NCBI GenBank assembly: GCA_014526335.1
Contig: JACTAT010000182.1
Coordinates: 248,001 to 312,000 of the forward strand
Direction of reading: 5' to 3'
Length of the DNA stretch: 64,000 nt
Source: Chrysaora quinquecirrha
Taxonomy: Eukaryota; Cnidaria; Scyphozoa; Semaeostomeae; Pelagiidae
The translations under genes and the position numbers were made by a program. The notes below the pieces were generated by a model. It worked only from the letters and a program-made list of their open reading frames with translations. It did no database searches and was not told where the DNA came from. Of the stretch, positions 6,830 to 64,000 are shown one piece after another (within the stretch, counting starts at the first letter, position 1; each line of letters begins with the position of its first letter).

Positions 6830-9498
6830 ATAGAAACAAATCGAAGGAAGAGATTCATTCAAAAAATCAAGAAATAAATAACATATGCAACCTTATTGAA
6901 CTTTTACAACCTCAAAGAAAATTCAGTAAAGAAATCTCGTCCCCCAGAATTTTATTTCCCATAGTGTTGCAGTATTTACAGTATCTTTCTGATCTTAGAA
7001 TTTTGTTTTTACCAAATCTCCCAGCCTCAATTTCTAAGTTATGTGCACTTAATCTTAACTTTGACAAACATTGCCTTTTTTTAAAGTCAGAAGTTGCATT
7101 TAGATATCTTTCAAATTTGAAAACAGTTTTGGCTTCAGCATATGTACAGAGTTTTTTATTTTGAACCCAATGTTCGTGAAGATAGGACATGATTTGACTC
7201 GCAAAGTAATTGTAGACTTTTGATTTAATGATACAAGGAATATCAGAGGAAAGAATACCATATTTATCCCTTAAACTATTAGCTTTGGAGAGCCAATTTA
7301 CGTTACCAGAAACAGTGTCATTAAAAAGAAATCAAAAGCACTTTGAAACATACCTATTTGACTCTACATTATTTAGTGATTCAAGGCGACGAAGAAATTT
7401 GAGAATGTTAACATGTCTATGCAACTGAAGCTTAATTCTTCCAAGTTCAGCATAAATTGCATCGGAATTAGTCATCGATTTCACACCTAGTATATATTTG
7501 CAAGCAGATAAGTGAAGACGCTATAAGGTTATATAGTCATCGAATCCCCAAATTTCGGATGCATAATTAGGAATGGGTAAAATTGTTTGATCAAAAAGGT
7601 AAAGGAACAAGCTTGGTTGTAATCCTTCAAATTCTTTACATTTGTTAATTAATGCAAAATATGCTTTGCTAGCTTTCTCTTTAATAAGATCAACATGTTC
7701 ATTGAAAGAGCCATTTGATTTCATTGTTACACCGAGGTATTTGTAGGATTCACACTCTAATACATCTTTGCCGCCCAAATGCCATATCCTTTTATTTTTA
7801 GAACCATGTTTGTTTTTCTTAATTACCATTACTTTAGTTTTCTTGACATTTACTTCCATTTGGACATTGTTCGTAAAATTGTGTACACTATTTCCCTTAA
7901 CAGTGAAACAAGTAAATTGATTTGATTTTTCTTTATTAATTCTGCCATTCAAATTACGAAATCCAGACGATTTACAAAATGCCAGCAATTCCTTTCCATT
8001 TGAATTCAAATTGCCAAGGTCTTGTGTATTACGTAAATCTAGAGCCTTATCAGGAACATAACCATGGTCTAATGGAAGAAAGTCATCATTTTCGTCATCG
8101 TAGATAAAATCATTATGATTTCTTGTTCTAGCATTCAAGTCTCCCAAAATTAAACAATTTCCTAATTGATCATACTCAGCACATTCCTCAAGCATTACCT
8201 CAAAATTGAAACAAAGACCGCTTTTAAACTAATAAGAATCAGCTGGAGGAATATATGCCATACATATTAATAAATCTTTGGCAAAATCAAAGCTTTCCTT
8301 CCTTATCTAATTTGCACCATACTCTGTGAGAATTCGATGACAAGATGCTGAAATATTTCTCAATATTTTTACGAACAAGAACGGAAATTCCCCCGGATGC
8401 TCTACCTCATACACTTTGTCTGGCACCTAATTGGTTAAATTCACGAAATTCACAAGCCCAGTTAATATTCTCTAAATCATGCTTCTCACACCAAGTTTTA
8501 CTAAAACAAATTATATGATTTTTCTCTACAATATCATTAAAATTACTATCATTTGAAAGTTTTGCAATTTTATGTTGTTTTAACACATTAATATTCCAAA
8601 AACAGATGTTTAACCTATCATAATCGTTTATATTTCTTAAAATTTTATTTTCAGGTAAATTGATTTCCAGATTTACAATTTTGGTACCGTCTTGGCAATG
8701 ATCCAATTCATTAATTAAACCTCGTATTAAATCGTTGTAATCATTGAAAGAATTGACATGGAATACACTATCATTAACTTGAAACTTACACCTTATTTTC
8801 CCATCGATGGTCCAGACTGATTCGTTTCCCAGCTCCTCTTTCTTGTCTAGAATATTGTTAAAATAATCTAGAATTCCATGAGCGAGGTCTTCTCTAAAGG
8901 TGACATTCTTGGCCTTTCACTTTTCTTTCACAACCTTTGCCTTTGTTTTGTGCGAAAGGCACTTTACCAGGATTGCTCAAGGCTTTCCGTCACTCCTTCA
9001 CTTTCCTGTTCCGTGAACAATATGAATTTCTTTAGTGTCAACCTCCACACCAAACTCTTCCTTTATTATGCTGATACACTTCTCTTCTACTGCTTCATCT
9101 GCTTCTTCGTCAACCCCAAAGATTCTAAAAGAGGCTTTACAGCTGTACTGCTCTTGCCTATTTTGTTCAAATCTTAATTCCTCAATTTCATTGGAGTGCT
9201 TCTCTAATTCTTCCCTCGCTACACTGATTTCGGCTGAGTTTTCTTCTCCGGCTTTTGAGACAGTGTTGATTCTGTCCTTCAAATTCACCATATCATTCTC
9301 CATTCAATCAAGTCTATCTTTTATCGAATCTTGGTTTTCCAAGATCTTACTTTGACCATGCTGCAAACCTTTTGTCATAGCCACTAGTTCTCTAATGCCA
9401 GGAACTCCAATTTTATTTAAATCGATGTTGACAGGCATTTCAAACTTGTTTGAAACTCTTCTAGGCGTTACATAGATTGTACATTCCACACTTTCCAT
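6830..9498 (-). mobile_element. Decayed non-LTR retrotransposon (LINE), internally deleted
   Basis: Read on the minus strand from 9498. The start (9498-8998) encodes a coiled-coil ORF1-type protein followed by an RRM-like segment (ASFRIFGVDEE), with one in-frame stop at the 9304 junction. An apurinic-type endonuclease domain follows, with CFWNIN near 8620 and the catalytic-type LILGDLNAR near 8145. The sequence then jumps at about 7865 directly to the region after the RT palm (NVKKTKVMV, YKYLGV, YASEIWGF), so the RT core with its catalytic aspartates is missing. The end (7190-6912) shows the cysteine pair RYCKYCN typical of LINE C-termini. A frame break lies at about 8200-8400. The layout resembles CR1/Jockey-type elements. 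No activity is possible. Confidence 0.85.
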
Positions 9499-9529
9499 AT
9501 TAAAACTTCAAATTAATATATGATAAAAC

Positions 9530-11180
9530 AAAAACTACGATTCAATTAACAATCATAGGAGCTTCGAAAAACACATTGACTCTGATGAAAGCATGAGCTA
9601 CAAAGGCCTCAGTGTGATGAATTAAATGGTGTTTTTTGTCTGTTTTCTCTTTTTAGCATCCGACTTAAATAGTATCTAATTTATTGTTATTTACGGTACC
9701 AAATATGTATATATATATTTACTCCTTGTTGAGCTTTTTAGTTTGGTTGTTAATAAACATGTATATTCAGTGAATTTGTTATCTTTTTCAGAATTTCATC
9801 ATCTCCCCTTGGTACATACAGTATGTATAAGAATAATTTAATGAAGAAGCAGATAATGGCAAGAAAAAACACAGACAAAAGAAAATATTCTAATTGAAAG
9901 ACAGTAAAACCTGGCACAAGAAGTGGCCCGGAAATGGCCAGGATGCAAGGTATGCCAATCTTATATTCAATTTGTAAATATTAATTTCTTGCAAACTGTC
10001 GTTTTTTTTTTTACATTCAGAGTTTTATTTTTTCCAGTTAAGTAAATAGCTGTTTTTTTCCACTTCTAGAATCAAGGTCCTAAAAGAAAAAAAACATGGA
10101 AAGGCACTAGAAAAGCTCAAATGGGAGCAGATATCAGCCGAATGCAGGGATTAATGACATGAAAGATTCAAAGGACTGGATCCATGCCCATACCATTAAG
10201 TCTGATTACAGAAAATTCATTAGACAACATCCCAAATATAAAGGTAAGAATTTCTTAAAATAATGTTGAATACATTCATAAGACCTTTCATGTTGTTGTG
10301 TTTCTTGAAACTGTTCCTGTAAAAATTAGATTACATCCAAAACTTTACCAAGAAGACAAATTATTATGTTTTATAGAAAGAGGATTTAGAATTCCTCCAC
10401 AAAATCCCACAAAGAAGAGGTTGCCACCATCAACACCATCACCACCACTACCACAGCCAGAGAAGGATGGTCTTATAGCAAGAATGGCAGCTAGAAAAAA
10501 AAGAAAAATTCAAAAGAATAATGGAGAGGTCTAAATGGGAAGCATTGAATGGGCTTTAGATAGGCTGATCATTTTCTCTTTTTTAACTTTTTACATTTTT
10601 TGCTTTTATGAAATCTTATACATTACATACCATTGATTTTGGCATAATTGATATGTCCGTTGAATGTGATGAACTATGTGTGCTCTTTCTTTATGTGTGT
10701 GTGTTTCCTTTCTAGATTACAGAACAGATGGCTAAGTGAAAATAGAAAACGATAGATAATGAAAAAGAGTAAGGTAAGCTAGCTATATCAAAGCTTTAGG
10801 TAATAAATGAAAAAAAGGTCAAGATATTTTTAGATACCTAGATACATGCATATATATAGAAAATATATAACTAATATTGATAAAGATAGCTTGCGTTTGA
10901 TACGGCAGTAGGCTACTTTTTTTATAGACAGCAAAAGCAAATAATTAGATAAGATTTTCTTACCGTCTTTCGATCATTTCCATAGGATAGATATTTGCAT
11001 TGTCATAACACTTTATTGAACGTGATGACGTTTTTAGAGAAAGAAGATTTGGATCGTACTAAAAGTTTCACGCTGTCTTTCATAGTTTGTCCAGTGTGTA
11101 GAGAATTGACTGTGATTTTCATGAAAAATATACAATTGTCAAAGCTCTTATATAAGAACAGAGAACTAGCAGTGACCTGT
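9530..11180. other. Intergenic, no supported gene
   Basis: AT-rich sequence. A short open stretch at 10298-10534 is rich in proline and lysine, and a block near 10080-10160 could be an exon flanked by AG and GT, but nothing identifies a family or confirms splicing. Confidence 0.4.
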
Positions 11181-11739: not shown

Positions 11740-12900
11740 TAGGAATAGCTCAATAGTCGCATTGTCGCTGCAAAGTCTTTCAAAGCCAAGATTGGCAACA
11801 GGTCTGCGCAGATAAATGATATTTTAATAGTCTCGTTGTTGCTAGACGGGACGCTTTAGCCAAGCATGGCATCAGGCCTTGTCAGATTCTAGAAAACCTC
11901 CATAGTTTCTTGTCACTGTACCGTACGGCAAAGCCACATGTATAAGCACCTTAAGCGTCTTGTTCTTGCTAAGCCATACTCCAAAATCAAGCACGGCAGC
12001 AGGTTGGAGCAGATCTAGGAACGCTAAGCGCACTTATACCTCCGCCCAGCCAGACCCAATTTGTTTTTATTCTTCACCGTGATTGCTTCGCTCCTGCCAA
12101 GGCTGAGCAAATGCAAGATTACTAAAGGCGTTAGTTCCAGCAGGCTTGCAAGTAAGGGACACTCTCCACTGCTTTGGGTAGGGACGGCATGGCCAAGTGC
12201 TGCATCGGACTGCATGGCCAAGCATGGCCGCCGGTACGCAAGCATGATTTGCCTTGTTGCTGCACGGGACTGCATGGCCAAGCATGGCCGCTAGTACGCA
12301 ATCGCTCAATCCCGTTGTTGCTGCACGGGACTGCATGGCCAAGCAAGGCTGCTAGTACGCAATCGTTCAATCCCGTTGTTGCTACACTGGACTGCATGGT
12401 CAAGCATGGCCGCTTGTATGCAATCCCTTAATTCGGTTGTTGCTACACGGGACTGCATGGCCAAGCATGGCCGCTGGTACTCACTCGTTCAATCCCGTTG
12501 TTGCTACACGGGACTGCATGGTCAAGCATGGTCGCTTTATACGCAATCGTTAAATCCCGTTGTTACTGCACGGGACTGCATGACCAAGCATGGCCGCTAG
12601 TACGCAATCGTTCAATCCCGTTCTTGCTACACTGGACTGCATGGTCAAGCATGGCCGCTTGTACGCTATCCCTTAATCCGGTTGGTTGTTGCTACACGGG
12701 ACTGCATGACCAAGCATGGCCGCTGGTACTCACTCGTTCAATCCCGTTCTTGCTGCACGGGACTTCATCGCCAAACATTGCAGCTGGTACTCAATCCTTC
12801 AATCCCGTTTTGCTACACGGGACTTCATGGCCAAACGTGTTCGCTAGAACGCAATTGTCTAATTCTGTTGTCGCTACACGGGATCTCTACTTCTTCTTCC
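11740..12900 (+). repeat. 60-61 bp minisatellite inside the foldback element
   Basis: Eleven or more clear units from about 12185 to 12900 carry ACGGGACTGCATGGCCAAGC, then ATGGCCGCT, GTACGCAATC and CAATCCCGTTGTTGCT. Older, more diverged units reach back to about 11740 (GTTGTTGCTAGACGGGACGC near 11838). It is distinctly richer in GC than its surroundings. Confidence 0.92.
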
Positions 12901-25190: not shown

Positions 25191-25334
25191 GCGTTAGTAC
25201 TTTGAATGCAAATTTAGTGTTAAATTATGGTCAATTTATGGTCAATTTATGGTCAAATTAGGGAAAAATTATGGACGAAATCATGGTCTCAGTTTAGGGA
25301 CAAAAAAACAAGTTGACAAATAGTTTTACTGTGT

Positions 25335-25999
25335 AGTTACTGCTGATATCACCTTAACTAGGACTTCGTTGAACAGATCGCATATTCTGCGATTATTCAA
25401 CAAGATTCACCTTTTACTCTTGAAAGGAGATGCTTAGCTTAGAATATACCACTGAAAGTCTTGTATAGTTACTGCTGATATCACCTAAACTAGGACTTCG
25501 TTGAACAGATCGCATATTTTGCGATTATTCAACAAGATTCACCTTCTACCCTTGAAAGGAGATGCTTAGCTTAGAATATAGCACTGAAAGTCTTGTATAG
25601 TTACTGCTGATATCACCTAAACTAGGACTTCGTTGAACAGATCGCATATTTTGCAATTATTCAACAAGATTCACCTTCTACCCTTGAAAGGAGATGCTTA
25701 GCTTAGAATATACCACTGAAAGTCTTGTATAGTTACTGCTGATATCACCTAAACTAGGACTTCGTAGAACAGATCACTTATTCTGCGATTATTCAACAAT
25801 ATTCACCTTCTACCCTCGAAAGGAGATGCTTAGCTTAGAATATACCAATGAAAGTCTTGTTTAGTTACTGCTGATATCACCTAAACTAGGACTTCGTTGA
25901 ACAGATCGCATATTCTGCAATTATTCAACAAGATTCACCTTCTACCCTTGAAAGAAGATTGTTAGCGTCGAAAGTATCCATCAAAGTCTTGCTGAGTTA
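25335..25999. repeat. 132-bp satellite, five copies with an internal hairpin
   Basis: The marker TGCTGATATCACC begins at 25341, 25473, 25605, 25737 and 25869, an exact 132-bp period. Units are about 95 percent alike. Each contains GTTGAA-TCGCA-spacer-TGCGA-TTCAAC, which can fold into a stem. The last unit decays after 25950. Confidence 0.95.
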
Positions 26000-26413
26000 G
26001 TGCAGACTGCTGTAAAAAGAATGAGTTACACAAATTGCAAAATTAGCATCGTTTTTCTTACCTATTTCCTGTTAGGAATCGAAACATATAGTCTTTTAGA
26101 ACGTCGTGCACGACAAGAAAATCACCCATATTCAATATGCCACGTTTTGATCCACAAAAGCGTATTCTGTTGCTGCATTCTGCTGATGAGCATTTCCTGA
26201 AAGGTACTATTGAAAAAATTGTTACAAGCTATCATTCAATCAGTTACGAATTTAATTACAATTATTACATACAGAGTCCAATTTGTTGTTTCCAGGAAAT
26301 TGATATCGATACTTGTTTAAAACTTTCGTTGATAAATTACTTACCATGAACAAATTTGATACCAACTCGAGTAAGAAGTCTAATTGTTGAGTTCTCCCAG
26401 CAGATTTCTGGTT

Positions 26414-33372: not shown

Positions 33373-34740
33373 TTATTTACACATGAAAACTTGCAAAAAC
33401 CTGTCTGTTACATTTTCTGCATTGTAGTGTTGCTCCTCCTTTTGCCACATTAATTGCTGCATGAAATATTTCTCAAGCCGCTCGTGAATTTCATTCTGCC
33501 ACCTTTCAATCTGAAAACCAAATGTTACATTTTATTAAAAATGAATCAACATAATGATTCACTATACACGATTTGATTGTTATATATCTACCTACATGAT
33601 ATATATATATCTACTTACCAATCTTCTGGGTATGTTGTTCCATACATTTCGTCGGTTACCTATTATTAAAGTATATACAAAGTTTCTCTAAAGTTACCAG
33701 TTGTCCCAAAAAGGGAAAGTGCATGTGCCTGTTGGGAGGCCAGAGTGGCATTGGTCCCAAATAATTACAAGATTCCATTGTACTTCATGTGCAACGCCTA
33801 TTGTTCTATTGTTTTATTAAACAATAGGTGCCCCCAAAGTAATTTTTCTTTCTACAGCCCTGGTTCCATTCAAACTGCAGGCACAAATGCATTGTATAAA
33901 CAACAGGTTGTTTGTTAACTACTTTTAGCACTGTAGGAAGGAATCATAGTTTTGGGGGAGGGCGGCTGAGAAATAGAAATTAATGAGTGCCGCCATATAT
34001 CGACGATGTAATACCATTGTTCTGCCTATTATTGGGAGTCTGCAGTCCCCCTAGCCTCCCACTTCCTATGGGCCTGATGTAGCACTAACACACCAATAAA
34101 CACAAACCTGATTCGAGGTTGATTTTCCAAACATCACAGTATCTGCTGGGTTAACTGCACTGCCACACTGACTTCGTAAGTAGGCATGCATTGTGGCCAT
34201 TTGGCCTGTTTCAGATCCTTTATCCACTCTTATATGAGATGGATGAACTCTTGAGCTGTAGAGATAATCAAGATACCAGCGCCCTATTAGATTAGGTTCA
34301 CTGTTATCTGTCCAAACTCGTATCCACAATAGCTTCCTGCTGGCTGTATCCAGACAGCCGTATACTGCCAGTGGGAATGTGCATCTTTGATACCCCATAA
34401 GCTTGCAGTGGCCATCCAGGGAATGGACCGAATCAGGACCTTTACTAACAAAACATCCTTTCTTTTGTTTTCTGGCTCCAACTGCTCTGCCAGGAAGTCC
34501 TTGTGAATCTAGTTCAGTCATAATGGCATACACTAAATCTCTGGGAACATGCAACTTGTGCACCCGCCTTATTTTTTGATGCACAGCTCTATAACAAAGA
34601 TCCCTGCCAGGGCCATTTAATTCCTTCTGCACTGCATCTTTCACGTCTTCAACACTGACAGCTTGATTGGTTTTCTTTATGTTAAAATGGGCCAAACGAT
34701 GACGTAATGAGGGCCTAAGTTGCTCACGTGCGAACTTCAT
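33373..34740 (-). CDS. Integrase-like DDE protein (rve fold), two exons
   Basis: Exon 1 is 34740-34108 and exon 2 is 33510-33373 (TAA). They join at phase 0 (CAG|GT...TTTCAG|ATT) to give 256 residues with no internal break. The N-terminal part (VQKELNGPGRDLCYRAVHQKI) resembles a helix-turn-helix region. The catalytic core shows HSLDGHCKLMGYQ (first Asp), RVDKGSETGQM (second Asp) and, at the start of exon 2, IERWQNE (Glu). Placing the Glu after the intron is a strong check on the splice. Related proteins in aquatic animals come from integrase-type DNA transposons (Ginger or IS3EU-like; exact superfamily uncertain). The stop soon after the Glu may be early for the family. The gene is intact as read, so it could be recent or co-opted. 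Confidence 0.75.
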
Positions 34741-34844
34741 CTTTCTAAGAATCTCATTTCAATTAAAAGTATCTTGATAAAAAAATTATGATTCACAGTC
34801 ATATTAATCAATCAATTTTTTTTAAACAAAAAACACTTTTGCAG

Positions 34845-37800
34845 ATTATCAAGGACATCAACAAATCTGCTGCCTCATCAACCCCTCTTTCACTGGTCTC
34901 AGTGCCAAGCACTTCTGAGGAGCCTCAAGAACACCAGTAAGAGTCACCCGGTCAAGCAACAGCAGCTGAGGGTAATTCTTTTATAGCCCTTGCGGCCCCA
35001 AGTGAGAAAACTGATGAGGTATGCAAGAATGAATGCAGTATTTTTACTCTGCTTCATTACATTCAGTAATAGAATTATAGTGTAATCTATATTTATTTGG
35101 GCTACAAGAGAAATTTTCTAGTACAGTTGTATCTTTTTTTGAAGTCTCAACATGCCAATATTGAGTATCCACAAGTGCAGCATTTCAAGTTAAAAATCAT
35201 TGAGAATGTCAAAGAACAAAGTTATATCTTTAAGACTTTTGCTTCAAAAACAAAAGTTAAGGAATCAGAAACTGCAGAGTAAGTAATTTGCTCCATTCAA
35301 GTATGTCAATTGAGAAAATACATATAAAAAATTACAGAAGAATAAAAAATATTGATATGAATTACAAAAATTTCAATCAACAGGAAAATTGAACAAGCTT
35401 AAAAGACTTAAGTCTCCTAAAAAAGTCAGTGCTGGTGATGAAACTAGTGTTCAGGACATGTCCAGCCAAAGTTCATCTGAGGATGATTGCGAAGATTTTC
35501 TTTATGAAGAGGATAAAATTGATGTTGAAGACGCGGAAATGCCATTGTATGAACCATCAGGGGAATCGGAGAGTAGTGATACAGACAGTGATGCTGAGGA
35601 GCCAGATGTGTGAGTATTGCATCTTTCAGATTTCATCATCTTTGCAACTCATTAAGAGAAAAAGCTGGTTCAACTTCAATGTTATTCATACTTTCGTTGC
35701 AGGATTATTGCAAATGATCTAGACTTATGTAAACAACCAAAATTCATTGTTTTCCTAAGTCAGATTCTGTTACTGTTCAAGTTCTGCCATTTCTGCAAAA
35801 CTGAGAATCCCAGTATTCAAGCAAGAAAATGTGGAGCAATGCTTCCAGTGAGAAGTTTCTGTATAAACCCAAAATTCAGAAAAAAATATATTTGGAAGAG
35901 TCAACCTTTGATGGCAGGCACAAAAATACCAGCAGGCAACTTTCTTCTTAGTATGTCTACCTTGTTGGCTGGCGGATCAATATCAAAAGTTATCCAGACC
36001 ACATGAACCTTGGTTCAAAACTCTGTCAACATTTTTGAAACATCAAAGGGTGAATTTTTTGTTCCTCAACTATTTATTTTGTATCATACTTCTGATTTTG
36101 CCTTGTCTTACTTGGCCTTGAATGAATACATTTAGATCACAATTGCTATGCCTTTGCTTTTTAGACCAAACTTTTTGCAGCAATTTATATTCACTGGAGA
36201 AATTATCAGTGTTGTTTAATTGAAAACCTGAAGCATGGCGATAAAGAAACCATTCTTGCTGGACACGCACAACATGATAGCATGGGGCATAGTGCTAAAT
36301 ATTGTGCTTACTACATATACTCATGTTCTGATTCATCAGTTGTCCATTTCAATCTTGTACAGGTAAGTTTCAAGTTCCACAAAGCCCTTTTTTTAAATGC
36401 AGATACATCAGGTTCTTTTGAAATTTGGAATTACCAATCACTGAACAATTCTTTGCATGTTTGATCGTGCATAAAAATCAAGCTGGTAGTAGCAGTGCTA
36501 TGGAGTTGTATGCATTCAAAAAATGTTTCGAATTTGTAATAAATAATGGTATATCAATATGAAAGTTTGTAACTGATTGACATACTGGTATCTCAAAATT
36601 CCTGAATGATAACCATCCAGACATAAAGCATCGCTTTGATCTGTGGCATATTGCAAAAAGTAAGTTTAAATCTATTCCTCTGGTGCAACAGATCATGGTT
36701 GAATATACAATAACTTGATAGCATAAAATTAATTGTTGAATTCACCAGGTTCTTCTCTTTTTTGTAGAAATAAATAAAGTTATGACAAAACTTGGCAAAG
36801 AGAAAGGGCTTCAAATATTGAATGCTTGGATTAAATCTTGCAAAAACCATTTATATTGGAGTGCTACATCCACATTTGATCAGAACAGCAAAGTTATTCT
36901 TGCAAAGTTTAAAACCTTTTCAGTCACATTGTCAACAAACACGAAAATCTTGATGATTCTTGATGTTCAAAAGATGTCCTCATGGACCAAATATCGCTCC
37001 AAGGAAATGGCTGCTTAAAGGTTTGCAATCAGATTGAAAACATGTAGATACTGCTGTGATATTTTGTATTTACATTTTAAGTTCAGGTACTGCAGCATTT
37101 GTCTGTACTTTTTGAACAAATAGTTGATGCGATTTCCAAACTTTAATTCCAGATTCTATTCCATATGAAAAACTAAAAAAAGAATTGACAAAAAAGCCAT
37201 TACTCAATGCCATCAAAAAAGTTTCTAACAATGCACAGACTAGCTGTTTTGAGGGCTTTCACTCTGTTATAAATGAATTTGCTCCAAAAATCATGTGCCA
37301 TTCTTACGTTGGAATGTTTTGCAGGTGAGAAAGGAAACTAAAGTCTTCATTTTTATTCTCATTTTCAGTTGCATGATAGCGTTTCTGATGTTGTGTTTGA
37401 GTAATAACTTTACCTCACAAATATGTTTTAGAATTGCACTAGCTGCAATAAATTTCAACTACAACATTCACTGAGAGGCTGTAAAAGGAAAGGATGGAAA
37501 AATGGAAAAGGTTGTGTACCCAAAGTCTAAGAATGGAGAGGCAACTGTTAGAAGCATATCTGTTCCTCCAAACTTTGGTAAGCATTCTACGGCTCAGACT
37601 TTTAATTCAAAATGCTTAAAATTTGTTACCTGGTGTTTTATTTCACATCACTAGTAAATTGTGTCACATCTCAATAGATATCTTCCTATTCTTCTTCAGA
37701 ATATATTGATGAATTCTACACAACACTATTGGATGCTTTGAAGTTACCTGGAAAATTGCAAACTGCTGCCTCAGAGTTGAAAATAATGACTCCATCTTCT

Positions 37801-38402: not shown

Positions 38403-39800
38403 AATCAGAGCCTGGTTCTTCTGGAAAGCCTCTTCCCTGCCCAGCCATGACTGGGAATGCCTGTCTGATCGCATTATAAGCACAGGCTGGCAAAGGGATT
38501 CGTCTGGTCCAAGCTTTTGTTAAAGGGTTGTCTGCTTTGCACTTGTGACAAAATGAAAATAAGTGCAGCAGTTCTGATATAAAGATAATAAACTTCTTCT
38601 CTGATTTCATGTTGTGATCTGAGAAGTTGCTGTAAATGAAAAAATCAGCTATTTACAACACTGGAGTGTTAACAAATTTTACAATTTTGATGGTAAGTAC
38701 TTAGATACTACTAAAGATATAAATTTCATGCTCACATTTCATTTATTTCTTCTGAACAATCATAATCATTATCAACATTTTCTTCTTCCAAATCCACATC
38801 CATATCATCACCAAAAATTCATTTTCATTATCATTATCATCATCGTCAAAATCATCTTCATATATATTTATATCATCTTCGTTATTTACAGGTTCATTGA
38901 TTACATCAGGATTATCAATTTTCTCCTAGCAAAACAGTGAATTTTCAGCTACAAATGATAAAACACTGATGAGTTCATCTGATTAGGTAAAATTCCAATG
39001 ACAATATATAGAATTCAAAAAGAACAGTTACACAAAACAAGCATAAAATGAAATATGTAAAAAATGAACATGTTATCTTTAAGCTGCTCAATATATTTTT
39101 CCATTTTGCTGATTTTGAATTTCATGGCACGCTGTTGGTTCCTTATTTTTCTCATTCTTCTATGCAGGTGCTTGCAGTTGGAGCAGGATGCTTTTTTGGA
39201 TGGACTTGAATCTTTCAATAGAAATGTAATAACTTTCAATTTTAACTCTTTCCTCAATGTTTGTGATATGTATTATATTATCTTATTTTTATTAGTGTAT
39301 GATATATTAATGTATTTTTTAATAAAATGTGTGCGTTCTACTTACAAACAATTTGAGGTGTTTTAAAAGGTTCAGCTGCATGGCTCTGTTCAGACTCATG
39401 GCTATATTCTGGCTCCTTGTCATTTGAACTACTACTACTTGGTTTATTTGAAGTTTGATTCTCTGCAGTCGATTTCATCACAATTCTAATTGTCTATAAA
39501 GAAATAAGAATTTTCCCTTCATAGCAGGTTGGTATTTTACAAATATTCTTGAATTGATGGATCGGGGAAATGAATACTGGGCACAGCTACAGTACCAATT
39601 TCTTCCCTCGACAAAACAGGTTTCGATTTTCTTTCAAATCCCGGTAGTAGTACCTTTTGCTGCTCAAAATCTGAGGGTTTAAAGTGTTTGGAGCATATTA
39701 CTGAGTGTGCTGTGGCAGTCCACTTTGCTCTCTTTGCCTGGACAAAGTTTACCCAGAATCACCGTCTCTGCTTTGCAATAGGCCTTTCGTCACCAAAATA
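38403..39800 (-). pseudogene. Chimeric remnant: THAP and linker exons fused to a P2X7-type C-terminal exon
   Basis: Read on the minus strand. 39790-39560 encodes the second half of a THAP zinc finger (AKRAKW, VICSKHFKPSDFE, AVPSI), with a stop just upstream. Then come a serine-rich exon at 39494-39353 ending in GTAAGT, a coiled-coil exon at 39250-39078 (CSNCKHLHRRMRKIRNQ), an acidic block at 38930-38735 and an exon with FCHKCKADNPLTKAW (about 38610-38515). That last one breaks off inside and continues without a gap as RRIPLPACAYNAIRQAFP to TGA-equivalent stop at 38403. The first five pieces match the transposase gene's N-terminal order; the final piece matches the last exon of the 59.8 kb P2X7-type gene. 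A deletion between two neighbouring cassette genes explains the fusion. Confidence 0.65.
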
Positions 39801-40027
39801 GGGAACAATAACGCCTAACAAATCAACAGGACCAAAACTTTATGGGTTTGAAGTTGAAAACAATCAAATGGAGAAACTTCAAAATTGTGTTGAAGGAAAT
39901 GAATATGAAAGTGCGAGACCGAAACCTTTTCAAAATTTCTTAAGGAATGAAATCATTATAGCACTATGAGCTACAGTCAGAATCCTTTTTGTGTACATGT
40001 ACTTCAATGTATTCCAACAAACTTAAT

Positions 40028-58094: not shown

Positions 58095-59500
58095 ATTTCA
58101 AATCTTTAATTACAAAGAATGCTCGTAATTTCTAATGCGATGCAGCTAGGGATGAAAAACTGAAAAACTTGAAACATTTTCTACCTACTTTCTCTGAGGA
58201 TGGTAATATGATTGAGCTGGATAGAGCGAAGTACTAAAAAGTGGATCCAAGGTAATCATATACCAAAAATAGGGGCACTGCTTACAAAAGTTGAACAGCT
58301 GCATTTTGATACGTGGTTAGAGGGAATACTCACTTGGTTAGGAAGAAATGCTAGAAGAAAGAGGTGAACAGCCATGGAGAGTTGAGTTTCATTGCAAAGA
58401 TGAAACTCCATAACATCAATAGGTATGTCCATTTCAGTCTACAAGATGGGCGAAGGACAGGAGGAAATTGCGCAGCCACTTGCCAGCTACATTGCTGAAA
58501 TGAACTGGAGCGAATTTTAGCGAAACTAATCAACCGATTCAGTTTGAGTTCAATATTTTGGCCACAAACTTTGTGCCAGAATAGGAGCCACAAGTTAGAT
58601 AATATCTGAATCTGCGAACCTACCATATAAATCCTATTTAGCCTTTTTCTTACGTTTTTTCATAATTATCATTCAGCGCTCGTCTCTGCTATTATTGGAG
58701 AATTCACAGTGGCTTGTCCCACAAAGCTGCACTTACAGAGTTATACATTTGTCAACATAATAACTTGTGAACTGCGTCTGTATTATTATGACTATAAATA
58801 GAAAAAGTGGCACACTTTGTATTGTAACGCGAAAGTGAACAGATTTTTCTGTGTTTAGGGTGAGCCGTGGTATTTGAATTCCTCTCCACTCCACCACCAA
58901 GCCTGGTTTTCAAACTAGCCATATCCGCCGACGATAACCACCTTCATCTACACCTACACCTGTGCCTATGTCATCACTTATGCCTATGCCTATGCCTTCA
59001 CCTATACCTGTGCCTATATCTTCGCCTATGCCTACACCTATATCTGTGCCTTAGCCTACACCTATGCCTACATCTAAACCGATGCCTGTCCCTATCCCTT
59101 CGCCGACACTAATGCCTACATCTCACCTACACCTGTACCTAAGGCTTGTCCGATGCCTAAGCCGTCATCTACACATACGCCTGTGCCTATGCCTTACCTT
59201 AGCCTAGACCTTCGCTTCATCTACACCTACACTTGTTCCTAAGCCTTCGCCTGTGCGATTGCCTACAACTTATCGACCTAGGTATCTGCCGTCTTCTCGA
59301 GCATTCATGGCTACATAAATCAAATTGAAGAGCGTGGTCATAAAAAAGTACTTCGCTCTATCCAGCTCAATCATATTACCATTATCAGGAAAAGTAAGGA
59401 GAAAATGTTTTATCTTTTTCATCTTTTACAACATTCATAGCAGTTCAGAACCCTAGCTGCATTGCAATAGAAATTACAAGCATTCTTCGTAATTTAAAGT
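58095..59500. mobile_element. Small foldback/long-TIR element
   Basis: 58095-58245 and 59345-59500 are inverted copies (GGTAATATGATTGAGCTGGA, TAGAGCGAAGTACT, ATGCAGCTAGGG, CTTGTAATTTCTA-like). The enclosed 1.1 kb has no transposase. It carries a hexamer-rich tract at 58935-59270. Confidence 0.8.
58935..59270 (+). repeat. Degenerate hexanucleotide repeat, CCTAYR-like
   Basis: Dozens of CCTATG, CCTACA, CCTGTG and CCTTCG units in near-6-bp register. Derived from a simple repeat; open frames across it are artefacts. Confidence 0.9.
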
Positions 59501-59769
59501 GCCTCTTCACCTTATTTTTTTTTACTCTTTATTAGAGATTCCAACACGCTGATTCCGAATATGCACTTGTTTTTCTTGTCCGGTTAATAGTTTTTGAGTT
59601 ATGCGTGGTTTTTTGACGCAAAAGACTGAAACAGGACCGGGCTTTCTGGAGACTGGGGATGAGTGATCATCTACGTCATAGTAGGAACCCAAATTTCTCG
59701 CTTCATTCCGACAAGAAGACTTGAGATTCATCGTTTCTAAGATTTCCCGCTGCCTGTTCGTGTTTTAAA

Positions 59770-60931
59770 ATGTCTTCGTCGGAAAGTAGTATTTCAAGTG
59801 AGTCAGATAGTATTTCTAATCAATCTGACGAATTTTATGCTTTGGAAGTGGAAGAGGAAGGAAATGAAGGGGCTCGCGCTGGAGCGAATAGGCCTAACAG
59901 CACGGATCAAGATGTTGACCTGGACGAAGATGAGGATGGGCTGCACCAATTCGACCCTTTGGCAGATGACGCTTTCATTGCTGATTATGAAAGAGACATA
60001 GAAGAGAGAGGAGAAGAAGAAAGAAGACTCTTGAGACGTTTTGAAGGCGCTGAACCACTAGAATCCTGGTATGTTTTATTTTTGTCCATCTGTACCGTGT
60101 TATCAATTGCCAAAACAGGCAATTGACACTTTTATTCTACAAATAGAAGAAGCAATACAATTCATGTTTACATCAGCTGTTTTTCTGTCAAAATAGACAC
60201 TTATGGTGCAACAGAAGTTTGTAAAACCTAATTTATTTTAGATCTCAGTACGACTGACCCGAATGAAAATAGAACACTGATTCTTTTTACAGTCTTGATC
60301 AGGATATCCCAATCAAATTGAGTATTAAATTACCCATTTCTCTTTTAACAGGTGCAAATGTGGGAAATGCTCAACACAGAGGTTGGAAAATGCTAAAGAG
60401 TGCAAGTGCTGCACAGAAATTGAAGGTTGTATGCTTGCTCTTTCTGACTGTGAAGTAGTGGAGGAAGTTGGCAATGTTCAGTGTGTTACAGAGCATCCTG
60501 GATTTGCACCAGTATGTCTTAATAGATATGTTCTGCGTCTGTCAGCAGATAAATATAAGACAAGAGGAGGAAGGAGATACAGACGTACTGGGTTTGAAAA
60601 TGAGTAAGCAAATCTTAGAATTTTCTTTACCTAACAGATTTTATGGTTTCATGATTTCACTTCACACATCTAAATTATTCTAACAATAATCATCACTTTA
60701 AATATTATAGTTTGTTAATTAATATATAATACAATAACGTCAACAACTTCAAATATTTCCAGGTTTCTGCGAAGCATATCCTACAGAGACTTCACACGCC
60801 TAATTCATGGTTTCTTGGGCAGGAATAAAAGAATACCCTTGCCAGCTTGTGCATACAATGCTATCCGAAAAGCTTTTCCAGCTGTTTTGGGGCAGGCAAC
60901 AGGCTTCAGAGATGAGGCAGACTCTGACTGA
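59770..60931 (+). CDS. P2X7 C-terminal-type cysteine domain protein, three exons, intact
   Basis: Exons 59770-60068, 60352-60603 and 60763-60931 join at GT-AG borders with matching phases. They total 720 nt, encoding 239 residues and TGA. Exon 1 is acidic and serine-rich (MSSSESSISSESDS). Exon 2 holds the zinc-binding pattern WCKCGKC, CKCCTEIEGC, CVTEHPGFAPVCLN and VLRLSADKY. Exon 3 holds SISYRDFTRLIHGFLGR and IPLPACAYNAIRKAFP. This order of Cys clusters followed by Y-R-x-F and P-x-C-x-x-x-I-R-x-x-F-P is that of the cytoplasmic 'ballast' domain of the ATP-gated channel P2X7, but no transmembrane segment is present, so this is a soluble stand-alone form. It ends 300 bp from the stop of a convergent DDE transposase-like gene; the last exon is also found beside the other cassette copy at 38.4 kb. 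Its role in that element is unknown. Confidence 0.85.
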
Positions 60932-61231
60932 GCCTCAGTAAGTAGATACTTCCTAGAAAATAATATACATAGACTCTGAATCACATTCCTATCTGTTCTT
61001 ACAACTGGAATAATATTTTATTCATCTTCTCCTTAATTTATATATAAATCTCGTATCTGAGAGTTCTCCTTGCTTATGCAAGGTCTAGCATGTTGCTCAA
61101 CATGTATTTTCAAGAAGTTTGTTTGGGAAAATGGAATCTTGTTAGTTGTTAGCCGTACCAAAAGTGAGAAATGCAAGAATTCACAAAGTGTCTTGAATAA
61201 GCTGAAATGTCATACATACTAACATTCTTTT

Positions 61232-64000
61232 TTATTTTTTTCGACAGTCTTTTACATTTTTGTGTCCTTTCATAGGTTGCTTGCAACTGGAACACACTGG
61301 TTTAGCTCTGGGCTGTGCTGTTGATTTTCTCTGTGGAACAACATTAACTACAAAATAGAAGTGATAAATTATTTGTTTCCAAAATGGATACAGAACATTT
61401 CAATGCTCTAACTTTGTTTGATTTTAAGTCTTAAAAAGTACCTGGAATAGTTGGTGGTACATCCATGACATCCAATGACCGGCGCATTTTCCAAGTTTCC
61501 ATTGCAATGTCTCTTGGTTGCTTCTCCAGCATAGTGTCCATGATAATGATGTGATTGCTTTCAATTCAGAAGCAGCATTTTTAAGGAAATCGGGTGACTG
61601 TATTGTATTCAACAATGTCTGGTATATTTCATCAACATAATCTAAAGGGATAAAGGAAAAGATGTTCACAATTTCAGCACCTAAAAGTACACATTATAAT
61701 GCAGATAAGGACATATGAAGATTTTAAAATCAAGTTTAGCATCTGGCTACTGGTATCGCTTACCAAAGTTCTGAGGAACAGAAATGCTCCTAACTGTTGC
61801 CTCTCCATTTTTAAACTTCGGATAAACAACCTTAATTCTGTCTGTACCATTGTTTCGCTCTGCCACTCTTTGGTGGATTTGGTGGATGTTATAGTTAAAT
61901 TGATTGCAGCAAGAGCAGTTCTGAAGGAAGAATTGTCAGCTCTCAATTCTGGATAAGACTGAGAATAATGACTACCTAACATGTGTGAAGTGTAATGAGA
62001 TATCAATGTTATCAAACCTGCAAACCATTCCAGCATATGAGTAGCATATCATTTTTGGTGCAAATTGATTTATCACGGAATGAAAACCTTCCAAGCAGCT
62101 TGTCTGGGCTTTTTGTGAGCTCCTTTACAAGTTTCTCATATGGAATGGAATCTCGAAAAAATGGAAATATGTTAATTTGCAAGGGCAAAAAATCAACAAA
62201 ATCACACACAAGTAGATTATATTATCAATTCATCAGACACATACCTTTCAATAACCATTTCGGTGCTGCAATGTTTGGTCCATGTGAGCATTTATTGAAA
62301 AGAGGATCATCAAAGTTCTCATGTTTGTTCACTATGTGGCTTAAGAATGCTTTAAACTTTGCTAAAATAACATCACCATTCTCATCAAATGTAGATGTGG
62401 CACTCCAATACAAATGATTCTTGCAAGATTTGATCCAGTCGTTGATTATCTCCAGACCTTTTTCCTTGCCAAGCTTGATCATAACTTTGTTTATTTCTAA
62501 AAGAAGAACCAAAATATTTTGTCAGAATTTGAACTTCATTCAGGTTTCTCAAAATGTTTTACTTCAGCTACATTTATTGCATTAAAAACTTACTTTTTGC
62601 AATATGCCAAAGATCAAAGCGATGTTTGATGTTAGGTTGACTGTCGCTCATAAATGCAGCAATGCTTGTATGCCGATCGCTAACAAACTTTGAAATTGTT
62701 ATACCAGAATCTAATAATTGATCCAAACACTTCTTAAATCCATAAAATTCCATAGCGCTACTACTACCAGCTTGATTTTTCTGGAAAATGTAAATGGCAA
62801 AAATCATTACTTAGTAAAGAACCAAATTTTTACATCTGAGTGAGAAAACCAGCCACATATTCCACTAACAAGTTACCAAAAGTTTTCAAGCAAGTATTTG
62901 TTCATTTGTGTCTGTGACAGGAAATTAAGAACACATTGAAAAACTTACTTGGACAAGGTTGAAATGTATTACAGATGAATTAGAACAAGAATAAACTGAG
63001 TAAGCACAGTATTTAGCACTATGACCCATGCTGTCATGACGAGCATCTCCAGCAAGAACTATTGAATCTTGACTATTCTTTATCTTTTGCAGCAGTTGAT
63101 TTTGATAATTTTTCCAGTGGAGGTAAATAGCTGGAAAAAGTTTAGTCTGGAAGAAATAAGATTGCTACTGTAATCTGCCAACAAGTTGAGCCTTTTAAAG
63201 ACAAATGCATTATTTGAATAGAAAGTGAGAGTACTCGTACTTTGCAATTCAAGAAAAAAGAACACATTTTACCCTTTGATGCTTAAAGTATGTTGATAAT
63301 GATATTGTCCCAAGACTCATGTGCTTAGAAATCTGGTTGACCTTTGATATCGAGCCTCCAGCAAGTAAAGTAGACATACTCAGAAGAAAGTTTCCAGCTG
63401 GTATCCTTGTTCCTGTCATTTGAGGTTGACTTCTCCAGACGTTCTCTTTTCTACATTTGGGATTGATACAGAAACTCCTAATTGAAATCATTGTTCCACA
63501 TTTCCTTGCTTCTGTACTTGGATTATCAGTTTTGCAAAAGTGACAGAACTTGAAAAGCAGTAAGATCTGAGTGAGGAATACAATAAACTTTGGTTCTTTG
63601 CGCAAATTGGCTTCATTTGAAACAGTCCTATAACAAGATAGGTACTTGTATGTATCGTAATTATTATTGTATATGATTATTATAAAAAACAGAAATGCTC
63701 TTAAAACATAAACCAATTAGTTTATATTTAAAGAGCATTTCTTTTGTTGTCATAGCAAAGTTTACTCACACATAAGGATCTTCTGAGTCTGATTCACTGT
63801 CTGAGTCACTACTATCGGATTTCTCTGATGGTTGATACTCGGGCATTTCTTCATCCTCAACATCAAACTGGTCCTCTTCACATACAAAATCTTCGCAATA
63901 TTCAGAATCAGAATCTTCGCTAACACTTCCCTCAGTATTTTCATCCTTGTTTTTATTTATTTGTGGGGTAGCTTTTTTAGGGGACTTCAGCCTCATCAAT
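61232..64000 (-). pseudogene. THAP/DDE-type transposase gene, right cassette copy (5' end outside window)
   Basis: Minus-strand exons: beyond 64000 to 63770 (acidic), 63627-63273 (zinc-binding FCHFCK...KCG...CINPKC), 63146-62949, 62780-62594, 62496-62245, 62150-62018, 61920-61764, 61641-61442 and 61347-61232 (zinc-knuckle CSSCKQPMKGH, TAA). The probable first catalytic Asp lies in GDARHDSMGHSAKYC, a second in SKFVSDRHTS, and the D(2)H pair in HRFDLWHIAKS. The first five exons in the window are open and in phase. Later damage: about 40 bp missing near 62105 compared with the left copy, and single-base shifts near 61900 and 61560. It resembles Kolobok-type transposases, an inference. It lies tail to tail with the intact P2X7-type gene. 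Confidence 0.78.

What the first reader, a model, noticed from the sequence alone, without database searches (positions are those of the whole stretch)
59770..64000. DDE transposase paired with a stand-alone P2X7 C-terminal-type domain
An intact three-exon gene for a soluble protein with the P2X7 cytoplasmic cysteine domain converges on a multi-exon DDE transposase-like gene. The same order and orientation recur, inverted, at 34.8-38.6 kb. If the pair is a transposon's normal gene set, the vertebrate channel's C-terminal domain may descend from, or share origin with, a mobile-element accessory protein.
Basis: partly seen in the sequence, partly recalled or inferred. Interest (0 to 1): 0.85.

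Follow-up and report, generated by a model that had tools for sequence, protein, structure and literature searches.

The report
Jumping gene carrying P2X7-tail helper gene
The two genes are the normal cargo of a known kind of animal jumping gene (a Kolobok DNA transposon), and the link between its small zinc-binding protein and the tail of the vertebrate P2X7 channel has already been published, so this is a well-resolved new example rather than a discovery.

Summary
The pair is real. It lies in one DNA transposon, window 59498 to 65388 (1.4 kb past the window end): 13-bp inverted ends, TTAA target duplications in sister copies, an intact three-exon P2X7-C-terminal-type gene (239 aa, PF20478) and a convergent THAP+DDE transposase, frame-broken here but open in all 12 exons of a sister copy. 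It fits the Kolobok superfamily, Kol0 lineage; the small protein is KolX. Kojima & Bao (2022) already report that KolX has the P2X7 ballast domain and that P2X7 arose by fusing a P2X4-like gene to KolX. KolX is constrained between families (dN/dS about 0.12, near-saturated dS). Two deep KolX types share an N-terminal [YH]xx[ED]P motif that I did not see mentioned in what I read. Ten places of one family keep KolX and break off soon after it. The 34.8-38.6 kb locus is a decayed copy of a second family fused to a third Kolobok fragment, not a duplicate of the first.

The parts
59494..59497 (.). TTAA target-site duplication, left (the right partner beyond the window reads TGAC)
59498..59510 (.). 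left terminal inverted repeat AGTGCCTCTTCAC; the right repeat lies outside the window, ending at 65388 (L009:7888)
59770..60068 (+). KolX exon 1: acidic/Ser-rich N-terminus with motif HQFDPLAD
60352..60603 (+). KolX exon 2: zinc-coordinating Cys domain, first part
60763..60931 (+). KolX exon 3: C-terminal part (RIPLPACAY), stop
61547..64000 (-). Kolobok transposase gene, decayed, approximate exon blocks 61547-61642, 61762-61860, 62018-62152, 62243-62497, 62595-62780, 62946-63146, 63273-63626, 63769-64014; further 5' exons outside the window up to about 65107
35383..37791 (+). decayed transposase of a second Kolobok family (family B)
38404..38508 (-). KolX exon 3 remnant of the family B copy
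38512..39839 (-). pieces of a third, divergent Kolobok transposase (T5-like block 38512-38622, THAP 39540-39839) abutting the KolX remnant

Best explanation
An autonomous-type cut-and-paste DNA transposon of the Kolobok superfamily, Kol0 (KolX-bearing) lineage. Two genes face each other between 13-bp inverted ends and insert at TTAA. The larger gene makes a THAP-DDE transposase that should bind the ends through THAP and cut and join through D-D-E. The smaller makes KolX, a soluble zinc-binding protein with the P2X7 ballast domain. Most likely KolX is a helper of the transposase: it partners it through the conserved acidic N-terminal motif and steers nuclear entry, complex assembly or target joining, as the Myb-like second protein does in Harbinger transposons. 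Shown: the element structure, the pairing, and selection on KolX. Inferred: zinc and protein binding, the helper role, present mobility.
For: Ends and TTAA. Sister copy L016: 839-aa transposase from 12 exons; exons 2-12 have AG acceptors and exons 1-11 GT donors (exon 1 starts at the ATG), open throughout. Its THAP match is E 4.6e-10, with Mutator/MULE DDE matches below their cut-offs. Motifs GDARHD, TDRHT, FDLWH (DxxH), LEGFH and HxxxxH..CxH were read by eye. Pairing 98 of 154, 98/98 convergent, chance about 1. Between families A and B, KolX Zn-domain dN/dS is 0.12 against 0.05 for the transposase core and 0.07 for THAP. KolX and transposase identities co-vary (Spearman 0.64 over 86 pairs). 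In Dendronephthya gigantea, LOC114539600 (KolX) and LOC114539599 (transposase) are both listed with a longest contig of 310,116 bases. The literature defines Kol0 as Kolobok with KolX.
Against: The helper role has no direct test. dS is near saturation (1.1-2.3), so dN/dS values are rough, and within-family values rest on few changes (L009-L010 0.59, L009-L011 1.74 on the Zn domain). 56 of 154 KolX loci had no transposase hit within 6.5 kb, though the searches were capped. No Repbase Kol0 sequence was at hand for a tree. The window copy itself cannot be autonomous, because its transposase is broken.
Confidence: 0.86

Rival explanations
1. KolX is a passenger or regulator (for example anti-silencing or self-repression), not a helper in the transposition reaction.
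For: No enzyme signature found in KolX (Pfam: PF20478, plus in the window copy a sub-threshold match to an unrelated model). Ten places of family D keep KolX and break off soon after it, nine of them with no transposase-core hit within 6.5 kb.
Against: Constraint on KolX not far from that on the transposase, and persistent pairing across deeply diverged families; neither separates regulator from helper.
Confidence: 0.3
2. Host genes caught together by chance or by one segmental duplication of a host region.
For: None found beyond the two loci lying in one window.
Against: Unrelated flanks, TTAA duplications, two different families, dispersed copies on many contigs.
Confidence: 0.01
3. KolX is an old host domain captured by the transposon (host to element), and P2X7 took it from the host gene rather than from the element.
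For: Rump et al. 2020 report one or a few (under 10) ZCD genes per species and an ancestral synteny of ZCD genes with two markers across invertebrates (PMC7016195, results part read). My tree cannot root the direction.
Against: In this genome most KolX loci found lie beside transposases (98 of 154), and Kojima & Bao argue the reverse direction.
Confidence: 0.15

Closest known systems
Kolobok, Kol0 lineage (Kolobok-1_XT; KolX protein), Kojima & Bao 2022 PMC9587614
   Same: TTAA target, RR...YY ends, DDE transposase with DxxH, KolX with the P2X7 ballast domain; the P2X7-origin idea is stated there
   Different: Other host; gene orientation of Kol0 is not stated in the passages I read; placement by tree not done here
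ZCD / ballast-domain proteins and nanor, Rump et al. 2020 PMC7016195
   Same: Same stand-alone zinc-Cys domain in short soluble proteins across Metazoa
   Different: That paper did not connect them to transposons (as Kojima & Bao note), found under 10 genes per species, and calls the N-terminal parts variable and without obvious homologs; here 154 loci in one genome, and an N-terminal motif shared by two deep types
PIF/Harbinger two-gene transposons (transposase plus Myb-like/MADF protein), PMC9710019 passages
   Same: Works-like model: both proteins are needed for transposition, and the small DNA-binding partner binds the transposase for nuclear co-localisation
   Different: Unrelated proteins and a 3-bp target; analogy only
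MuDR of maize (mudrA transposase and mudrB of unknown function), PMC3276141 passages
   Same: Two-gene autonomous element of the Mutator group, whose transposase shares the C/DxxH motif with Kolobok; second protein of unknown function
   Different: I know of no kinship of MURB to KolX (not tested); mudrB is found only in Zea

Membership tests
Kolobok superfamily | TTAA target-site duplication | tested here: met
   TTAA on both sides in 5 of 6 copies with both ends found (of 16 loci fetched); the window copy has TTAA left, TGAC right
Kolobok superfamily | termini 5'-RR ... YY-3' | tested here: met
   AG...CT in 5 of 6; L021 begins TG
Kolobok superfamily | DDE transposase with C/DxxH and a zinc finger before E | tested here: met
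   motifs read by eye in the L016 transposase, not aligned to known Kolobok; Pfam Mutator 23.8 and MULE 19.0 bits, both below their cut-offs
Kolobok superfamily | THAP domain (usual) | tested here: met
   PF05485, 40.6 bits, cut-off 23.9, L016 copy
Kol0 lineage | encodes KolX with ballast domain | tested here: met
   PF20478 26.7 bits (window copy) and 33.6 bits (L016); conserved Cys pattern
Kol0 lineage | DDE-core tree position with Kol0 families | not tested
   no Repbase Kol0 transposase sequence at hand
P2X receptor | ion-channel domain with two membrane spans | tested here: not met
   239-aa protein; the only Pfam match above its cut-off is P2RX7_C
P2X7 ballast domain | measured Zn or guanine-nucleotide binding, and fold | not testable with these tools

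The most novel reading that the evidence does not exclude
KolX carries a conserved N-terminal docking motif ([YH]xx[ED]P, 32-41 residues before the zinc domain) that P2X7 would have shed (P2X7 itself not tested for it), and KolX gives an advantage in cis: in one family, places that keep KolX but break off before the transposase core outnumber near-complete copies 10 to 3. P2X7's tail would then be a transposase-cofactor module stripped of its docking motif.
Probability: 0.15. Interest if true: 0.65.

Novelty: new member of a known kind. Interest (0 to 1): 0.38.

Why it matters
It supports in another genome, with counts, that the P2X7 ballast domain belongs to a family of transposon-borne proteins. 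It also gives an element with both genes open for asking what that domain originally did, which bears on the unexplained role of the ballast domain in P2X7. The main idea is already in print, so the added value is quantitative support, a candidate functional motif and a test system.

Tried and rejected
Segmental duplication: rejected, flanks unrelated. A host single-copy gene: rejected, many dispersed copies. Co-divergence by two nine-row single-exon trees: broadly compatible but unresolved (no starred branch). A group with KolX 62-68% but transposase 40-48% identity hints at module exchange and was not resolved. Tree of P2X7-type domains (31 rows picked by hand): two P2X7 rows on a long branch, unrooted, so it says nothing on direction. 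Fold comparison was not possible. Sequence comparison with solved P2X7 chains gives weak matches only: best E 0.017 for the window KolX, 8.7e-4 for the family D KolX, 0.09 for a 12-row profile. Alignment A1 held a wrong first row and was replaced by A2.

Limits of the counts. Searches scored 150 of 187, 165 and 249 candidates, so counts are lower bounds; one search scored all 75. 56 of 154 KolX loci and 65 of 163 transposase loci stayed unpaired. The chance figure assumes random placement. Of 24 PF20478 loci, 10 were paired; 11 of the 14 unpaired appear among the family D DNA matches (one of them, C326, near-complete, so its lack of a pair is an artefact of the query), and 3 stay unexplained. 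The identity correlation used 86 hand-entered pairs, of the 88 found alone; copies of one family are not independent. The motif pattern was chosen after seeing the alignment, so its shuffle control is not an independent test. Its count skipped 65 of 92 rows for which no zinc-domain start with at least 40 residues before it was found; two scored rows (P0018, P0117) were parsed at a later W and count as misses, P0003 and P0112 are true misses, and some rows are near-duplicates. In one search L016 is the reference, so its own completeness there is by construction; its open frames rest.

Full report
What was checked. The window is bases 248001-312000 of contig C171 of a 328-Mb genome in 740 contigs. 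It carries no name. The closest KolX proteins in the protein search are a EukProt entry (57%; its 'Seg... GoldUCD' label I recall as Aurelia, which no call states) and Rhopilema esculentum (56%), then corals and anemones. The host is therefore most likely a cnidarian, perhaps a scyphozoan jellyfish (inference).

The element. Fetching the flank beyond the window and comparing copies gives ends at window 59498 and 65388, 5,891 bases. The ends are AGTGCCTCTTCAC inverted. Of the 16 loci, six have both ends: lengths 5.7-5.9 kb, TTAA on both sides in 5 of 6, AG...CT termini in 5 of 6. Except for one match between the two flanks of L015, their 1.5-kb flanks show no similarity to one another or to the flanks of the 34.8-kb locus at E 1e-5. 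That is dispersed insertion, not duplication of a host region.

The two genes. KolX in the window is intact: three exons, GT-AG, 239 aa, Pfam P2RX7_C above cut-off. The transposase on the other strand is decayed in this copy (two frames needed in exons 1, 9 and 11; exon 2 too diverged to match). Copy L016 reads open through 12 exons: 839 aa, THAP 40.6 bits, weak Mutator/MULE matches below cut-off. Against L016's exons, each of the other eight copies compared has at least one exon incomplete, in two frames or with a stop. In L016 I read by eye the Kolobok hallmarks given in the literature: two D motifs, DxxH (FDLWH), an H2CH-like finger and the E motif (LEGFHSV).

The second locus. At 34.8-38.6 kb the transposase exons belong with a second family (about 70% DNA identity to the first, as in L015-L021). 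Only KolX exon 3 was found there. It is joined in one open frame to a fragment of a third, divergent Kolobok transposase, whose THAP piece (25.7 bits, cut-off 23.9) lies at 39540-39839. No inverted ends were found there within three mismatches.

Pairing across the genome. KolX exon-2 hits and PF20478 hits merge to 154 loci; transposase hits merge to 163. Within 6.5 kb, 98 of 154 KolX loci have a transposase hit, and 98 of 98 are convergent; about 1 would be expected by chance. Within 20 kb, 106 of 154 have one, 105 convergent and 1 same-strand. 56 KolX and 65 transposase loci stay unpaired within 6.5 kb. Identity of KolX and of its neighbouring transposase to the references rise and fall together (Spearman 0.64 over 86 pairs, 0.66 over 65 distinct value pairs; copies are not independent). 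Outside this genome, Dendronephthya gigantea LOC114539600 (KolX) and LOC114539599 (transposase) are both listed with a longest contig of 310,116 bases.

Selection. Between families A and B, KolX Zn-domain dN/dS is 0.12 (dS 1.10), KolX N-terminus 0.32, THAP 0.07, transposase core 0.05 (Nei-Gojobori). Between families B and C the KolX Zn domain again gives 0.12; between A and C dS is saturated. The values are rough, but KolX is plainly constrained between families. Within-family values come from few changes and mean little: on the Zn domain 0 and 0.29 in family B, 0.59 and 1.74 in family A.

Two deep KolX types and a shared motif. Window-type KolX (FLRSISYR...RIPLPACAY) forms one supported group of 13 rows (100/100). 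A second type (RHVAYRQ...VRVVLPACAV), found in cnidarians, a hemichordate, echinoderms and molluscs, lies on the other side of that branch together with P2X7; whether it is a clade depends on the root. The second type also occurs here as family D (L035) and scores better against solved P2X7 chains (E 8.7e-4 against 0.017). Both types carry [YH]xx[ED]P before the zinc domain: 12 of 14 and 11 of 13 scored rows, against 0.46 and 0.65 expected in shuffles; in the matching rows it lies 32-41 residues before the W that opens the zinc domain. The pattern was chosen after seeing the alignment. Rump et al. describe the N-terminal parts as variable and without obvious homologs, and I did not see the motif mentioned in the parts of Kojima & Bao that I read.

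Deletion derivatives. In family D, a 3.2-kb DNA query found 15 places: three near-complete, one with the transposase side only, ten that keep KolX and stop at query positions 809, 913 or 1058-1069 (KolX ends near 590), and one fragment. Nine of the ten have no transposase-core hit within 6.5 kb and one has a 40-residue fragment. Four loci have a transposase-core hit at 98-100% to this family. The one derivative read (L036) keeps the open KolX last exon and a THAP first exon (23.4 bits, just under the 23.9 cut-off), but its DNA departs from L035 some 480 bases after KolX. Whether keeping KolX is selected or accidental is open.

Mechanism. The best-supported reading is a two-gene cut-and-paste element with a helper protein. 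The transposase part follows from the family. The helper role is inferred from selection and pairing, and from analogy with Harbinger, where both proteins are required and the Myb-like partner binds the transposase (PMC9710019, abstract and passages), and with MuDR, whose second protein is of unknown function (PMC3276141, passages).

What is known. Kojima & Bao 2022 (PMC9587614; parts 1, 3 and 4 of 6 and passages read) name the Kol0 lineage and KolX, report KolX similarity to human P2X7 476-595, and state that P2X7 arose by fusing a P2X4-like gene with KolX. Rump et al. 2020 (PMC7016195; abstract, part 2 of 3 of the results, and discussion read) had found the domain across Metazoa, with under 10 genes per species and a shared synteny that they take as ancestral. 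The THAP, DDE and H2CH motifs of Kolobok are described in PMC6004289 (passages). Text searches for 'KolX' and for 'Kolobok' with 'P2X7' gave one and two papers.

Noticed in passing
window 34066-34758 (-): 230-aa open frame with an integrase-core match (PF24764 rva_4, E 7.8e-7), a different mobile-element piece beside the fossil Kolobok copy
   Followed up: partly
window 38404-38652 (-): open frame joining a divergent Kolobok transposase fragment in frame to the KolX C-terminus, apparently a recombination or deletion junction
   Followed up: partly
L036 (G000:C311:174701-177300) and nine further loci: family D places that keep KolX and break off soon after it, at query positions 809, 913 or 1058-1069; one read
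   Followed up: partly
G000:C389:1080434-1081577 and similar loci: group whose KolX is closer to the window's (62-68%) than its transposase is to the reference (40-48%): possible exchange of the KolX module
   Followed up: partly
window 2442 to at least 4979, 12234-12810, 25198-26006: tandem arrays with units of about 80, 61 and 132 bases
   Followed up: no
L009 about 8000-10000 (window 65.5 kb onward, outside the window): retroelement-like coding sequence right of the element, seen by eye; by recall it resembles a BEL/Pao type
   Followed up: no
G000:C286:332176, C368:139662, C424:1483036: three P2X7-C-type loci with no transposase hit within 6.5 kb and not in family D; possible stand-alone genes
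   Followed up: no
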